Positions 8,396 to 15,574 of a DNA stretch of 64,000 bases are shown here, piece by piece. Below the pieces are notes generated by a model. The model was not told where the DNA came from. It saw nothing but the letters and a program-made list of their open reading frames with translations, and did no database searches. Positions within the stretch are counted from its first letter, which is position 1; each line of letters opens with the position of its first letter. A program made the position numbers and the translations under genes. This stretch comes from Solirubrobacterales bacterium. GTDB taxonomy: Bacteria > Actinomycetota > Thermoleophilia > Solirubrobacterales > 70-9. The stretch is from contig JAGQUT010000001.1 of assembly GCA_020438355.1 (NCBI GenBank), forward strand, positions 186,001 through 250,000, in the 5' to 3' direction.

Positions 8396-9175
8396 TCAGG
8401 CGACTGCCGGGGCGAAGCTGACCGACCAGATGGCCGGTGAGCCTTCGAGTTCGATGCCGATCCGGTGGGAGCCGTGCCGCTCGTGTTCGGCCAGGGTGTA
8501 GAGGCCGGGCCCGTCAATCTCGACCAGGCCATGAGGCTGCCCGTCGAGGGTGATCCGCAAGGCGCCGGAGCCTTCGGCGGTCGCGTAAGAGCCTCCGCCT
8601 TCGTACTCGACGTCGAAGGCCTGACCGTCTTCGGGAGTCCAGGGCCGGCCGTCGAAGGGGACCAGTTCCTGTCCCGGAGGGATCACTTCCGCACCCGGCG
8701 CATCGGTAGCGCGGACCGGGGCCATCGGTTCCGGCATCGCCGGGAGAGTCTCGAAGGAGGCCTTGAGAGCCTCCTGGATGGCTTCCTCGGTACCTTCGTA
8801 ATCGCCTTCGCCGAAGTGGAACCAGCGCAGGATTCCGCCGCGGCCCCAGAGGAAGAGTGAGGGCCAGCCTTCGCAGCCGTAGCCGGTCCAGAGGAGCTGT
8901 CTGTCATCAATCAGAACCGGGAACTCGATTCCTAGTCGGCGAATGGCTCTCTCGGCTGACTCCGGGTCGCCCCCGAACGGAAACCTCGGAGCTTGAACAC
9001 CAAGTACACGCAGGCCCATCGGTTCGTAACGCTCGTGCCACTCGATCAGGTAAGGGAGGGTCCGAACACTGTTGAGCTGGCTGTAGTCGAGAAAATGCAC
9101 CAGTACCGGGCCCTTGGCCGTCAGTACAGGCATCTTTCCGGGGTCTTTTCCGATCCAGGTTGCTTTTCCGGGCAA
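8396..9175 (-). CDS. Thioredoxin-fold protein lacking the CxxC motif (DipZ C-terminal-like)
   Basis: 259 residues, homologous to the last two domains of the DipZ protein at 22994-24748. The thioredoxin-like part aligns closely (YEPMGLRVLGVQAPRFPFGGD; FHFGEGDYEGTEEAIQEAL), but where DipZ has TYTCINCIRTQPYL this protein has DYSQLNSVRTLPYL, so both redox cysteines are lost. The last 90 residues match the DipZ beta-rich C-terminal domain. It cannot be an ordinary disulfide reductase; a binding or scaffold role is possible. No signal peptide is seen. The start is uncertain: TTG at 9175 is the first standard codon, but the frame stays open and family-like (IAAPELPG) further upstream to about 9211. 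Confidence 0.72.
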   Translation of the reverse strand: MPGKATWIGKDPGKMPVLTAKGPVLVHFLDYSQLNSVRTLPYLIEWHERYEPMGLRVLGVQAPRFPFGGDPESAERAIRRLGIEFPVLIDDRQLLWTGYGCEGWPSLFLWGRGGILRWFHFGEGDYEGTEEAIQEALKASFETLPAMPEPMAPVRATDAPGAEVIPPGQELVPFDGRPWTPEDGQAFDVEYEGGGSYATAEGSGALRITLDGQPHGLVEIDGPGLYTLAEHERHGSHRIGIELEGSPAIWSVSFAPAVA

Positions 9176-9279: not shown

Positions 9280-9909
9280 GTGAACACGAATCTGTGGGAC
9301 CGCATCGAGCAGGCCCGGGCCGAGTACAACGTCCTGGAACACCCCTTCTACCAGCGCTGGTCGATGGGAGAGTTGACCCGTGAGGAACTTGCCCATTACT
9401 CGGGCCAGTACCGCTACGCGACGGAGGCAATCGCCAAGCTGAGCGCCGACATCGCCGCCGAAGCGCCGGAATCCGAGCGTGTCGGGCTGGAAGCGCACGC
9501 AGCCGAAGAGCACGATCACGTCGTCATGTGGGACGGCTTCGTCAACGCTGTTGGCGGGACCGTCGGGGCTGAACCGAACCCGGAGACTCTCGAATGTGTC
9601 GCGACGTGGACCAAGGCAGACGGCTTCGGTCGCCAGCTCGCCCGCATGTTCGCGATCGAGTCCGGTCAGCCGGAGATCTCGAAGACCAAGACCGAAGGTC
9701 TCGGAGAGCATTACGAGATTCACGACGCTCCCGGCAACCTGTACTTCACGGTCCACGAGGAAATGGACGTCCATCATGCCGCCGAAGGCCGCAAGTTGAT
9801 CGAGCGTCACATGAACGATTTCAGCGAGGACGAACTCGTCGATGCTGCCCGTGAAGCCTTCAAGGCGAACTGGCTGCTTCTCGACGGCGTCGAGAAGGCG
9901 CGCGCCTGA
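9280..9909 (+). CDS. CADD-like heme-oxygenase-fold diiron protein (candidate p-aminobenzoate synthase)
   Basis: 209 residues, one TenA/PqqC/CADD-type helical domain. All six diiron ligands of Chlamydia CADD have counterparts at the right spacing: Glu71, His78, Glu126, His158, Asp162 and His165. The CADD residues reported as donors for p-aminobenzoate, two tyrosines and a lysine, appear to correspond to Tyr24 (in EHPFYQRW), Tyr40 and Lys136. The thiaminase cysteine of TenA is absent. GTG start at 9280 follows a GAGGAGAG ribosome site. The downstream gene overlaps its stop. The alignment to CADD is from memory. Confidence 0.8.
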   Translation: MNTNLWDRIEQARAEYNVLEHPFYQRWSMGELTREELAHYSGQYRYATEAIAKLSADIAAEAPESERVGLEAHAAEEHDHVVMWDGFVNAVGGTVGAEPNPETLECVATWTKADGFGRQLARMFAIESGQPEISKTKTEGLGEHYEIHDAPGNLYFTVHEEMDVHHAAEGRKLIERHMNDFSEDELVDAAREAFKANWLLLDGVEKARA

Positions 9910-11300
9910 GTCTTCCTCTCGCACATGCCCTGTCAGCGGGGCAGGATCTGCCGATACCGGCGTGGCTCTTCGCCTGGGGAGCCTCGATTGTTCTGGTTGT
10001 TTCTTTCTTCGCTCTCTCAGCGGGCTGGCGCCGGGCCCGCTACGAGGGCGATTCGTGGCGTGTGGTGGCGCCCGGCTTCAGCCGGGCGATCACCAGCCCG
10101 CCGGTTCGCATCATCTGTGGTGCGATCGGACTCTTCCTGCTCGGACTGGCGGTCTATGCCGGTTTCGAAGGAACTGAGGCGCCCGATCGCAACATTGCAC
10201 TCACCCTTCTCTTCGTAACCGCCTGGCTCGGTTTTCCGCTCCTGGGTGTCCTGATCGGGAACGTTTTCCCCGCCTTCAATCCCTGGAATGCCCTTGCCGC
10301 GCCGGTCGGCCTTGCGTGGCGGAAGGTGACAGGGAGCGCACCTCGTCACCTCGCCTACCCGGAAAAGGTCGGTCGCTGGCCGGCTGCTGTCGGGCTCTTT
10401 CTTTTTGTGTGGCTGGAGCTGATCTACGGCCAGAGCAGCGGCGTCGCGGTAGGGGTCTCGCCCGAGGCGGTTGCCGAGGCAGCGGTCATTTACACGGTTT
10501 ACACGCTGGTCATGGTCGGACTCTTCGGTCGCGAGACCTGGTTCCGGAACGGCGAGATCTTCTCGGTCTATTTCGGAATGTTCGGCTCGCTCGGCAAGTT
10601 GGAGGCGAGAGGGCGCGAACTCGGGGTCCGCCGCTTGCTTGGAGGTTCAACGAACTGGGTTGCCGGGATCCCCGGATCAGTCGCCCTGGTAATCACCTCG
10701 ATCGGCACCACGACGTTCGACGGTGCCTCGGAGGGGGTCTTCAAGGACGGGATCGAGTGGCTGATCGACCGCTTGGCCGACCTGGGTCTGAGCGCCACGG
10801 CGGCTGTCCGGACCTCAAGCACCACCTTCATGCTTCTCAGCGTCGGCCTGGTGGCGCTGGTCTACCTGGCCGGAGTCAGGGGCATGAGCACGATTCCCGG
10901 CGCACCAGCAAAGAAGACCCTCTGGCAGACCTTTGCGCATGCCCTGATACCCATCGCCTTTGCCTACCTGCTGGCTCATTACTTCAGCCTCTTCTTCTTC
11001 CAGGAGCAGGCCCAGTTCACTTATCTGCTCTCTGACCCGCTCGGCACAGGTGATACGGACATCTTCGGGACCGCCGGCTACGGGATCAACTACAACGCGA
11101 TCTCCAACGAACTGGTCTGGTACATCCAGGTGGCCGCCCTGCTGGCCGGTCATGTCGCCGGGCTCGTACTCGCCCACGACAAGGCAATCACGATCTGGAA
11201 GGACTACCGGACGGCGGCGCGGTCCCAGTACTGGATGCTGGCGGTCATGGTCGCCTTCACCTGCTTCGGACTGTTCCTGCTTTCTGTTTCCAACTCCTGA
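9906..11300 (+). CDS. Polytopic membrane protein with apparent CTG start
   Basis: 464 residues with about ten or more hydrophobic helices. The reading frame is clearly coding upstream of the first GTG (10062): it encodes LPLAHALSAGQDLPIPAWLF and a first helix. No ATG, GTG or TTG lies there, but CTG at 9906 overlaps the upstream TGA (CTGA) and is preceded by GAGAAGG with 7 nt spacing, so I take CTG as the start. Proteins of this type are sometimes named fenitrothion hydrolase, a label I do not trust. Residues GRETWFRNGEIFSVYFGMFG and the paired-histidine segment AHYFSLFFFQEQ are possible functional sites. Role unknown; it is co-translated with the diiron protein. Confidence 0.75.
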   Translation: MSLPLAHALSAGQDLPIPAWLFAWGASIVLVVSFFALSAGWRRARYEGDSWRVVAPGFSRAITSPPVRIICGAIGLFLLGLAVYAGFEGTEAPDRNIALTLLFVTAWLGFPLLGVLIGNVFPAFNPWNALAAPVGLAWRKVTGSAPRHLAYPEKVGRWPAAVGLFLFVWLELIYGQSSGVAVGVSPEAVAEAAVIYTVYTLVMVGLFGRETWFRNGEIFSVYFGMFGSLGKLEARGRELGVRRLLGGSTNWVAGIPGSVALVITSIGTTTFDGASEGVFKDGIEWLIDRLADLGLSATAAVRTSSTTFMLLSVGLVALVYLAGVRGMSTIPGAPAKKTLWQTFAHALIPIAFAYLLAHYFSLFFFQEQAQFTYLLSDPLGTGDTDIFGTAGYGINYNAISNELVWYIQVAALLAGHVAGLVLAHDKAITIWKDYRTAARSQYWMLAVMVAFTCFGLFLLSVSNS

Positions 11301-11388: not shown

Positions 11389-11411
11389 TATTCACACTAA
11401 TATTGTGAATA
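11389..11411 (+). promoter_or_regulatory. Perfect 8-bp inverted-repeat operator
   Basis: TATTCACA (11389-11396), a 7-nt spacer, TGTGAATA (11404-11411). It covers the predicted transcription start, as expected for repression, and shares T[TA]CACA-N7-TGTGAA with the site at 1966-1984. The GTG at 11405 lies inside the repeat and is therefore an unlikely start codon for the next gene. Confidence 0.6.
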
Positions 11412-11443
11412 TTCCCGGGACGATTCCTGACAGAGAGGCCGGT

Positions 11444-12403
11444 ATGCGTTCAGATGCCAATAACGGCTGTCCAGCCCACGGGGGCGGCAGGGCGGCTACA
11501 GAATTAGATGAGTTGATCTCTGCTGTCTCAAGGCGCGAGGACCGTGACCCTGAATCGCGTACCGGCGTGTTGCTTGTAAGCCACGGCTCGCATTCTCCGG
11601 CTTGGCGTCGACACCTTCTTGACGTGCAGGAAGAGGTCAGTCGAGACCTCCTCGATATCCCCGGGGTCGGTGAGGTCCGCACAGCATTTATGGAATACAC
11701 CGAACCGTCCATAGCGAGCCAGCTGAGAGCCTTCGACGAGGCCCGGTTTGATTCGGTGGTCGTGGTTCCAATCCTGCTTACGATCAGTGACCACAGCTAT
11801 GACGACATCCCCGCAATATGCGGGCTTTCTGATGACCCGGAAAAGATCGCGGAACTCCAGAAGGAGCGAATTGAGATCTACCCCGCTCAGGCCAGTCTTG
11901 ACTTCGCACCATTGATCGATTTTTCAGGGCTGGTCCAGCGAAACGTCGCCAGAAGGGTTCGTGCCATCACCGGCCGGAGAGCGGAGGACGGAAGCGATGC
12001 CCGCTTCGGCCTGCTTCTGGTCGGCTACGGCAGCGCAGAGTATGAGGATGAATGGAACCGGTTCTTCACCGAAGTCCGTCGTGAGGCTGAACGAGAGTTA
12101 GGCATCAGGCACTCTGCTCACGCCTGGTGCGGGCACTTGGTGAACTACAGCCGGGAGCCAACGAACGATGCAATCGAGTCGTTGTTGCACAGCGTCGAAA
12201 GGGTCATCCTCGTTCCTGTTTTCGTGGCCTACGATCCGATGTTTCAAGAGAAGATCATCGGGCGCGCGGTAGAGCGTTGTGGCGCCCCTGAGCGGGTGCT
12301 CTACCGCCGGGATTCCATACTCCCGGACCCCGAGGTTGGCCGATGGGTTGTCGAGATCACCGGAAAAATGCTGGCGAGCGGCAGGGCCGGAGCGAATCTT
12401 TGA
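11444..12403 (+). CDS. Two-domain CbiX/SirB-type chelatase-like protein
   Basis: 319 residues. Two tandem CbiX-like halves: the first begins GVLLVSHGSHSPAWRRH near residue 40, with the metal-site histidine of the family (SHGS); the second begins FGLLLVGYGSAEYEDEW near residue 185, where the histidine is replaced by Tyr. Family members insert Co2+ or Fe2+ into sirohydrochlorin. Siroheme or a related tetrapyrrole would suit nitrite reduction, but the degenerate second half leaves activity open. Start ATG at 11444 has an AGAGAGG ribosome site. It is first in the operon with mogA, moaE and moaA. Confidence 0.75.
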   Translation: MRSDANNGCPAHGGGRAATELDELISAVSRREDRDPESRTGVLLVSHGSHSPAWRRHLLDVQEEVSRDLLDIPGVGEVRTAFMEYTEPSIASQLRAFDEARFDSVVVVPILLTISDHSYDDIPAICGLSDDPEKIAELQKERIEIYPAQASLDFAPLIDFSGLVQRNVARRVRAITGRRAEDGSDARFGLLLVGYGSAEYEDEWNRFFTEVRREAERELGIRHSAHAWCGHLVNYSREPTNDAIESLLHSVERVILVPVFVAYDPMFQEKIIGRAVERCGAPERVLYRRDSILPDPEVGRWVVEITGKMLASGRAGANL

Positions 12404-12548
12404 GGACGAGAGGTGACCGGTGCGGGTCGCCCCATCGATGTGTGGGACTCAGGCGCCCCGGCCCCTGGCCTCGCTGGAGTCGACGCTCCGGACCGGTCAG
12501 GCGTCAGACCCGGAGGCCCGAGTGAGAACCCGGGCGGGTTCCTATCCA

Positions 12549-12554
12549 TATCCT
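12549..12554 (+). promoter_or_regulatory. -10 box that fixes a leaderless mogA start
   Basis: TATCCT ends 6 nt before ATG 12561, which has no ribosome site. This supports 12561 over the in-frame GTG at 12420. The 157 nt between cbiX and this start hold no recognisable domain. Confidence 0.5.
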
Positions 12555-12560
12555 GCTTTC

Positions 12561-13076
12561 ATGAGGTCCCCGCTCCAGCCGGACGCAGTATCTGTGGCAG
12601 TCATCACGGTCTCCGATCGTTCTGCTCGAGGAGAGAGGAAGGACACGTCGGGCCCGAAAGCCATCCGGGCACTCGAAGAGTCGGGATTCAGGGCGATCGG
12701 TGACGGGTTGGTCACAGACGGTGCCGATTCCGTCAGGGACGGAATCGAGCGGTCCGTTGAGCGTGGTTTCGACGTGATTCTCACTCTGGGCGGAACCGGC
12801 GTCGGGCCGAGAGACCAGACCCCGGAAGGCACCAGATCCTTGATCGATCACGAGCTTCCTGGAATCTGTGAGGGGATCCGTGCTGAGGGCGCGAAGACAG
12901 TTCCGACCGCCGCTCTTTCCAGGGGCCTGGCGGGCATCAGTCGGCCGTCGGCTGCCGGACACCGAGCGGTGATCGTCAACCTGCCCGGCTCGACCGGCGC
13001 TGTCCGGGATGGGGTCCGTTATCTGACGCCGCTACTGCCTCACCTGGTTGACCAGCTGCGGGGAGGTGACCACTGA
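12561..13076 (+). CDS. mogA: Molybdopterin adenylyltransferase MogA/MoaB family
   Basis: 171 residues, the normal length for the family. The MoCF-biosynthesis fold shows VAVITVSDRSARGE near the N terminus, LTLGGTGVGPRDQTPEGT in the middle and VNLPGSTGAVRDGV near the end. It activates molybdopterin with ATP before molybdate insertion by MoeA. An in-frame GTG at 12420 with AGAGG upstream would add 47 residues of non-family sequence; I reject it because of the -10 box beside 12561. The stop overlaps moaE by one base (TGATG). Confidence 0.9.
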   Translation: MRSPLQPDAVSVAVITVSDRSARGERKDTSGPKAIRALEESGFRAIGDGLVTDGADSVRDGIERSVERGFDVILTLGGTGVGPRDQTPEGTRSLIDHELPGICEGIRAEGAKTVPTAALSRGLAGISRPSAAGHRAVIVNLPGSTGAVRDGVRYLTPLLPHLVDQLRGGDH

Positions 13077-13485
13077 TGGCCTTCGCGGAGATATCGGAAA
13101 CGAGCCTGGACCTTGGCCGCCACCTCGAAGCCGTCTCCGCTCCCGAGTGTGGCGCGATAGTCACATTCATTGGTCAGACTCGTGATCATGACCCAGACGT
13201 GGAGGGCAAGGTCGAGTTGATCGAGTACTCGGCGCACCCGGATGCATCCGAAATTCTGAAGCGGCTCGCAAACGAGGTTGAAGTACCTGAAGCCCGGCTG
13301 GCGGTGAGCCATCGGGTCGGGACGGTGCGGGTGGGGGAGCCCGCGCTCATCGCCTGCGTTGCTTCCGCCCACAGGGCCTTCGCCTTCGATCTCAGCCGAA
13401 ACCTGGTCGAGCGAATCAAGACCGAGGTGCCCATCTGGAAGCGTCAGAAGACGCATGGGGGAAGTCACTCGTGGAAGGGACTTGA

Positions 13486-13489
<4 letters not shown>
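13076..13489 (+). CDS. moaE: Molybdopterin synthase large subunit
   Basis: 137 residues. MoaE landmarks: GAIVTFIGQTRDHD, the YSAHPDASE segment, AVSHRVGTVRVGEPA, and the C-terminal active site EVPIWKRQ with the catalytic lysines. With MoaD thiocarboxylate it converts cPMP to molybdopterin in the cytosol. The partner moaD is encoded on the opposite strand at 14482-14727. Coupled to mogA (TGATG) and to moaA (GTGA). Confidence 0.95.
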
Positions 13490-14481
<992 letters not shown>

Positions 14482-14727
14482 TCAACCTCCGGCGAAGGGC
14501 GGCAGCACATCCACCCGGGAGCCATCGGCCAGGGCGGTTTTCAGATCGCGTTGATGCTCGCCGTCGACGAAGAAGGAGCATTTCCCGAGAACCCGGCGAA
14601 TCTCCCCGTCATCACTGCTCAGCTCGTTGACGAGTGCAGCGAGGTCCGGGACGTCCTCGAGTTCAGTCTCACCCGACCCGAAGGCCTCGGCGGCCCCGGC
14701 GAAGAGTCTGACGGTCACCCGGCTCAA
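14482..14727 (-). CDS. moaD: Molybdopterin synthase sulfur-carrier subunit
   Basis: 81 residues, ubiquitin-like fold ending in the diagnostic VLPPFAGG, where the terminal Gly is adenylated and thiocarboxylated. Start is TTG, overlapping the DUF6457 stop as TTGA. It is last in the moeA-moaC-mobA-DUF6457-moaD operon. Its activating E1 may be the rhodanese fusion at 53888-55060. Confidence 0.93.
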   Translation of the reverse strand: MSRVTVRLFAGAAEAFGSGETELEDVPDLAALVNELSSDDGEIRRVLGKCSFFVDGEHQRDLKTALADGSRVDVLPPFAGG

Positions 14728-14999
14728 GTCGCCTGCCCGGCCGCCAGCCTCGTGAGTCGGGAGTGCATGTCACGAAACGCGGTTTCGAACTGGTCAGCCG
14801 GCAGACGGCCGAGGGCGAGGCCGAAGACGAAGGTGGTGAGCGGGGCCGCCGGCCTGGCGACATCGTGGGCCACATCCCGGGTCAGGTCGAGCACGGCGGC
14901 GATGTCCACCTCTTCCTCGACTTCGAGCACCTCCGAGACCCGGGCCAGCCAGTCTTCGAGCGCTTCAGGAGGCAGGTGTCGCGGGTTCTCCTGGTTCAT
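14724..14999 (-). CDS. DUF6457 protein
   Basis: 91 residues, helical: LPPEALEDWLARVSEVLEV near the N terminus, then DLTRDVAHDVARPAAPLTTFVFGLALG. This small family is often next to or fused with mobA in actinobacteria, as here, where it overlaps mobA (ATGA) and moaD (TTGA). A role in guanylyl transfer or in protecting the cofactor is inferred from context alone. Confidence 0.85.
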   Translation of the reverse strand: MNQENPRHLPPEALEDWLARVSEVLEVEEEVDIAAVLDLTRDVAHDVARPAAPLTTFVFGLALGRLPADQFETAFRDMHSRLTRLAAGQAT

Positions 15000-15574
15000 G
15001 GAGTTTCCTTTCGTTGAAGTGCAGCGAGGTCTTTGGGTGTGTCGATGTCACGCGAGAGTCCGGCCGGATCGTCGACCTCAACCAGATCCAGGCTTCCGAG
15101 AAGGGTCTGGAGTGAAGCTCCTGAAGGATCCCCGAGACCAGCCAGGGAGCTTTCCAGCGACGAGTGGCGGTAGAGGCCGGAAAGCCATTGGCGACGGCCT
15201 TCGGCCGCTACAACTATCCCGTCGGCCCGGGGCGGAATGCGGCCGGCTTCACCAGCAATCAGGCCACAGAGTTCACCTGCCCGGGGGAGATCACATGCCA
15301 GCAGCAGGATCCACTCCCCGGTCGCCCGGTCCAGGGCGGCGGCCAGGCCCGCTACCGGCCCGCCGAACGGGGGCTCCTCGCGAACCGTGACCGTGCCTGT
15401 CGAAGTGATGTCTCCGGCGATCACGATCTCCCGGCAGCCCACATCGCGGGCGCCACGGGTAACCAGGTCAATCAGCCGTTCGCCGGAGATGGGAATCTCA
15501 CCCTTCTCCCGGCTGCCCAGCCTCGATCCCCGGCCGCCGGCAAGGATGACCGCGGTAGTCGGGTCGGGAATCAG
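14996..15574 (-). CDS. mobA: Molybdenum cofactor guanylyltransferase, CTG start
   Basis: 192 residues. The nucleotide-binding signature VILAGGRGSRLG lies just after the start, followed by GPVAGLAAAL and LLLACDLPRA. It attaches GMP to Mo-cofactor in the cytosol. The signature is upstream of the first standard start codon in frame (GTG at 15442), which would remove the active site. The frame opens right after a TAA, and CTG at 15574 overlaps the moaC stop as CTGA with GGAGG five nt upstream. CTG is therefore the only credible start. Confidence 0.88.
   Translation of the reverse strand: MIPDPTTAVILAGGRGSRLGSREKGEIPISGERLIDLVTRGARDVGCREIVIAGDITSTGTVTVREEPPFGGPVAGLAAALDRATGEWILLLACDLPRAGELCGLIAGEAGRIPPRADGIVVAAEGRRQWLSGLYRHSSLESSLAGLGDPSGASLQTLLGSLDLVEVDDPAGLSRDIDTPKDLAALQRKETP

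What the first reader, a model, noticed from the sequence alone, without database searches (positions are those of the whole stretch)
9280..9909. Candidate self-sacrificing p-aminobenzoate synthase (CADD-like)
The six diiron ligands of Chlamydia CADD map to Glu71, His78, Glu126, His158, Asp162 and His165, and the tyrosines and lysine implicated in making p-aminobenzoate from the protein itself map to Tyr24, Tyr40 and Lys136. Such enzymes replace PabABC. It is coupled to a membrane protein of unknown role, a pairing I do not know from the literature.
Basis: partly seen in the sequence, partly recalled or inferred. Interest (0 to 1): 0.6.

Follow-up and report, generated by a model that had tools for sequence, protein, structure and literature searches.

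The report
Divergent self-sacrificing p-aminobenzoate synthase
A free-living actinobacterium lacks the usual enzyme for making the folate building block p-aminobenzoate and instead carries a relative of the Chlamydia enzyme that cuts the building block out of its own protein chain; across related bacteria the two solutions replace each other almost one for one.

Summary
The ORF is real (9280-9909 +, GTG start after GAGGAG). It is a heme-oxygenase-fold dimetal protein whose closest solved relatives are the self-sacrificing p-aminobenzoate (pABA) synthases CADD and PabS (31% identity; AlphaFold pLDDT 96; Z 27 to CADD). The sacrificial Tyr (Y24), Lys (K137), second essential Tyr (Y40), Y44 and W84 are invariant in 25/25 relatives found without a motif. 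Among 35 genomes of the order, 16 of 17 with this gene lack PabB and 17 of 18 without it have PabB, with about six switches on a tree. Self-sacrificing pABA synthesis is the best reading, biochemically untested. The protein scores 110.6 bits against TIGR04305 (cut-off 200): a divergent sister subfamily. The membrane-protein 'pairing' is genus-level; that protein also occurs in genomes without CADD.

The parts
9280..9909 (+). CADD/PabS-like self-sacrificing p-aminobenzoate synthase, 209 aa, GTG start
   Evidence: TIGR04305 110.6 bits; PDB CADD 3.5e-23 and PabS 1.1e-20; AlphaFold model pLDDT 96.4, Z 27.3 to 1rcw
9349..9351 (+). codon of Tyr24, aligned with sacrificial CADD Tyr27 / NePabS Tyr25
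   Evidence: ungapped alignment; invariant 25/25
9397..9399 (+). codon of Tyr40, aligned with essential NePabS Tyr41
   Evidence: invariance; bridge alignment
9658..9660 (+). codon of Glu127, metal-ligand position (CADD Glu142)
9688..9690 (+). codon of Lys137, aligned with amine-donor CADD Lys152 / NePabS Lys159
9742..9777 (+). codons Tyr155 to His166: Y155 (CADD Y170 / NePabS F177) and ligands H159, D163, H166
9906..11300 (+). polytopic membrane protein whose frame overlaps the CADD-like stop codon (CTGA); a genus-level neighbour, not tied to pABA synthesis by distribution
   Evidence: conserved CTG overlap; present in CADD-less genomes; model pLDDT 87 without PDB match
8396..9157 (-). divergently transcribed thioredoxin-like protein lacking CXXC, conserved neighbour

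Best explanation
The gene encodes a single-turnover p-aminobenzoate synthase that stands in for PabA/PabB(/PabC). By analogy with CADD and NePabS: a dimetal centre held by E77, H80, E127, H159, D163 and H166 activates O2; a radical moves through aromatic residues (such as Y155, W84, Y44, Y40) to Y24; the Y24 side chain is cut from the backbone leaving glycine; it is oxidised to a carboxylate with O2-derived oxygen and takes its amine from K137. The product feeds FolP. Shown here: homology, fold, conservation of every residue reported as essential, absence of PabB with the other tested folate genes present, and mutual replacement with PabB. Inferred: all chemistry, metal identity and in vivo role.
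For: Closest solved relatives are the known self-sacrificing synthases, above other enzymes of the fold (Z 27.3 vs 23.1 for PqqC). Y24, Y40, Y44, W84, K137 invariant in 25/25 homologues found by profile, matching residues shown essential or important in NePabS (Tyr25, Tyr41, Lys159, Tyr45, Trp99; PMC11965152). No PabB in a 96.7% complete genome. FolP, FolB, FolK and FolE2 present. In 35 genomes of the order: gene+/PabB- 16, +/+ 1, -/+ 17, -/- 1, Fisher p 7e-8; PabB-type sequences form their own clade away from TrpE (99/96). On a proxy tree both traits change six times and independent pairs go opposite ways. A swap occurs inside one genus (G115 PabB, G136 CADD-like).
Against: No activity data. 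Score is 110.6 bits against TIGR04305's cut-off of 200, while a PabS scores 293.5. One genome (G145) has both genes and one (G124) neither. Only three tree-independent pairs rest on well-supported branches (sign test p 0.25). A PabC-like aminotransferase remains in the genome, although it may be a D-amino-acid transaminase. The gene is not next to folate genes.
Confidence: 0.85

Rival explanations
1. It is another heme-oxygenase-like dimetal oxidase acting on a free small molecule (like UndA, BesC), and the loss of PabB is coincidental or made good by uptake of pABA.
For: The fold is shared by many such enzymes and the sequence lies under the CADD family cut-off.
Against: Conservation of Y24, Y40, Y44, W84 and K137 together has no obvious reason in a free-substrate enzyme; more distant actinobacterial homologues (L264-L266, L268) lack the Tyr and Lys; the mutual exclusion with PabB.
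Confidence: 0.09
2. It makes pABA but from an added substrate or with repair, so that it is catalytic rather than self-sacrificing.
For: NePabS gives low conversion in vitro and may need activators (PMC11965152); nothing here tests turnover.
Against: Both studied relatives lose the Tyr side chain; the same residues are kept here.
Confidence: 0.04
3. The CADD-like protein and the adjacent membrane protein form one functional unit, for example a membrane-linked synthase or a pABA or metal transporter serving it.
For: Touching genes with a conserved CTGA overlap in the genus.
Against: The membrane protein occurs in many genomes without CADD, beside a cupredoxin-like gene, and is unlinked to CADD in several genomes that have both.
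Confidence: 0.05

Closest known systems
CADD (CT610) of Chlamydia trachomatis, self-sacrificing pABA synthase
   Same: Heme-oxygenase fold; Tyr27/Lys152 equivalents (Y24/K137); Tyr170 equivalent (Y155); serves a genome without the PabABC route.
   Different: 31% identity; E-x6-H first ligand pair is shortened, most likely to E-x2-H; Tyr141 is replaced by Ile126; not beside folate genes; outside the TIGR04305 cut-off.
NePabS (NE1434) of Nitrosomonas europaea and PDB 9pj4
   Same: Sacrificial Tyr25/Lys159, essential Tyr41, helper Tyr45 and Trp99 all have counterparts.
   Different: About 31% identity to 9pj4; lacks its insert near residue 60 and the stretch between the first two ligands; has Tyr where NePabS has Phe177 and Ile where it has Phe148.
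PabB (aminodeoxychorismate synthase component I), mostly in longer, probably fused frames in this order
   Same: Fills the same metabolic step.
   Different: Unrelated protein; takes chorismate; absent from this genome.

Membership tests
Self-sacrificing pABA synthase (CADD/PabS) | Heme-oxygenase-like fold closest to CADD | tested here: met
   AlphaFold pLDDT 96.4; top matches 1rcw, 8vag, 8va9
Self-sacrificing pABA synthase (CADD/PabS) | Sacrificial tyrosine and amine-donor lysine | tested here: met
   Y24 and K137 align with Y27/K152 and Y25/K159, invariant 25/25
Self-sacrificing pABA synthase (CADD/PabS) | Second essential Tyr and radical-path aromatics (NePabS Y41, Y45, W99) | tested here: met
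   Y40, Y44, W84 invariant; roles in PMC11965152
Self-sacrificing pABA synthase (CADD/PabS) | 3-His/3-carboxylate dimetal site | tested here: inconclusive
   E127, H159, D163, H166 aligned and invariant; first pair most likely E77/H80 but spacing differs from CADD, and H73/E76 are invariant too; no coordinates to measure
Self-sacrificing pABA synthase (CADD/PabS) | Makes pABA from its own side chains | not testable with these tools
   needs assay and mass spectrometry
Self-sacrificing pABA synthase (CADD/PabS) | Stands in for PabB in the genome | tested here: met
NCBIfam TIGR04305 as curated | Score at or above 200 bits | tested here: not met
   110.6 bits; 9pj4 PabS 293.5. Hence filed as a sister subfamily that works like it
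PqqC | Match to the PqqC model or a structure match better than CADD | tested here: not met
   NCBIfam lists only TIGR04305; Z 23.1 for PqqC against 27.3 for CADD

The most novel reading that the evidence does not exclude
A separate class of self-sacrificing pABA synthases, spread through Thermoleophilia, with a rebuilt metal site (E-x2-H first pair, invariant Tyr155, aliphatic residue at 126) and therefore perhaps a metal preference different from CADD or NePabS, that has exchanged with PabB repeatedly.
Probability: 0.35. Interest if true: 0.55.

Novelty: new variant of a known kind. Interest (0 to 1): 0.47.

Why it matters
Only two such synthases have been characterised in the papers read here. 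A large, divergent set in free-living actinobacteria, with repeated PabB swaps, shows that the costly single-turnover route is not a quirk of intracellular or ammonia-oxidising bacteria, gives natural variants of the metal site to test what sets Mn/Fe against Fe/Fe use, and lets one ask when cells prefer a suicide enzyme over PabB. It also warns against calling these genomes pABA auxotrophs.

Tried and rejected
The TIGR04305 hit in G087 rejected as PqqC-like: His instead of Tyr24, and PabB present. The idea that the thiol-less redoxin-like neighbour serves the CADD-like enzyme was not supported: it also occurs in CADD-less genomes, several times close to the membrane gene. A frameshift fusion of CADD and membrane protein was considered; the -1 shift needed has no evident slippery site, so reinitiation at CTG is simpler. 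FolE1 search was empty, FolE2 found. Foldseek search for the membrane protein gave no significant match. Paper searches for PabB loss in Actinobacteria or Thermoleophilia found nothing relevant.

Full report
What is there. The ORF at 9280-9909 (+) encodes 209 residues from a GTG preceded by GAGGAG; the same start context is kept in close relatives. A longer TTG frame from 9160 exists but is not supported by alignment. NCBIfam gives a single match, TIGR04305 'CADD family putative folate metabolism protein', 110.6 bits (cut-off 200). PDB sequence matches are CADD/CT610 (3.5e-23) and a 4-aminobenzoate synthase, 9pj4 (1.1e-20). The window lies in a 2.62 Mb, 133-contig genome, 96.7% complete; the nearest named relatives (92% protein identity) are Solirubrobacterales MAGs.

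Residues. Y24, Y40, Y44, W84 and K137 align with NePabS Tyr25, Tyr41, Tyr45, Trp99 and Lys159, of which Tyr25, Tyr41 and Lys159 are essential there (PMC11965152). All are invariant in 25 homologues collected by profile search without a motif; 80 further loci, found through peptide patterns that include part of these motifs and so partly circular, agree. On that helix the invariant residues are H73, E76, E77 and H80. Actinobacterial homologues with higher CADD scores have Asp-Glu and then His five residues on, canonical ones seven on; placing the query's Glu76-Glu77 on this Asp-Glu gives ligands E77 and H80. This E-x2-H pair is, from memory, like that of UndA. The Tyr beside the metal that steers NePabS to Mn/Fe when introduced (F177Y) is present as Y155; the other position (CADD Y141, NePabS F148) is I126, aliphatic in all relatives. 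A Mn/Fe preference is therefore a reasonable guess, no more.

Structure. AlphaFold on the 25-row alignment gave pLDDT 96.4, pTM 0.92. Foldseek and VIA-align put CADD first (TM 0.88; Z 27.3, 1.6 A over 202 residues), then PqqC at Z 23.1 and other enzymes of the fold.

Genome test. Chorismate_bind matches number two: TrpE, over its curated cut-off, and an isochorismate synthase over its cut-off beside a MenD-like frame. PabB is absent. Two class-IV aminotransferases exist: IlvE and a 262-residue PabC/D-amino-acid-transaminase-like protein below all cut-offs. FolP, FolB and FolK form a cluster, FolE2 is present, FolE1 not.

Replacement pattern. In 150 genomes of the class the CADD-like gene and chorismate-binding enzymes were counted, and 43 of them examined with the PabB model. 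A tree of TrpE- and PabB-type sequences splits them (99/96), and many PabB frames run on by 220-370 residues, as expected of fusions with PabA or PabC. For the 35 genomes of the order: gene present and PabB absent 16; both 1 (G145); PabB only 17; neither 1 (G124, 92% complete). Fisher p is 7e-8 but ignores relatedness; on a proxy tree of the membrane protein each trait changes six times, and in independent pairs PabB goes the opposite way or does not differ, with only three pairs on well-supported branches. In a second family (f7) 6 of 8 genomes with the gene have a single chorismate-binding match, against 15 of 22 without it having two or more. FolP occurs in 42 of the 43 genomes.

Neighbours. 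The order IspH - thiol-less thioredoxin-like gene (reverse) - CADD-like gene is kept in three families. Downstream, in the window's own family, comes a cupredoxin-like gene and then the membrane protein; in the window's genus the cupredoxin-like gene is missing and the membrane frame begins at a CTG that overlaps the CADD-like stop (CTGA in 15 of 16 loci). The membrane protein also occurs in genomes without CADD and on plasmids of other actinobacteria, rhizobia and haloarchaea, so by distribution it is not a pABA partner. Its model is fairly confident (pLDDT 87) and Foldseek finds no significant match in the PDB.

Verdict. I rate self-sacrificing pABA synthesis at 0.85. The protein is outside the curated CADD family score and is best called a divergent sister subfamily. 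The paper PMC11965152 lists such enzymes in Chlamydia, Wolbachia, Rickettsia, Chloroflexi, Sphingomonas and Nitrosomonas; Thermoleophilia are not named there.

Noticed in passing
window 9906-11300: Membrane protein frame has no ATG/GTG/TTG near its N-terminus; a CTG overlapping the upstream TGA stop is conserved in 15 of 16 loci of the genus, suggesting translational coupling from a CTG start.
   Followed up: partly
window 9906-11300; L068-L097: Widespread polytopic membrane family with invariant His and Asp residues, often beside a cupredoxin-like gene, with a fairly confident AlphaFold model but no significant Foldseek PDB match and no Pfam family.
   Followed up: partly
window 8396-9157 (-): Thioredoxin-like protein whose relatives nearly all lack the CXXC motif, conserved between IspH and the CADD-like gene.
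   Followed up: partly
L264-L266, L268 (family f22): Related actinobacterial proteins of the same fold family with Leu in place of the sacrificial Tyr and no Lys; probably a different function.
   Followed up: no
L164 and L166; L205 and L208: Two MAGs each carry the CADD-like gene on two contigs, a possible second copy or strain mixture.
   Followed up: no
window 11405-15442: CbiX-like protein followed by molybdenum-cofactor genes (MoaB-, MoaE-, MoaA- and MoaD-like).
   Followed up: no
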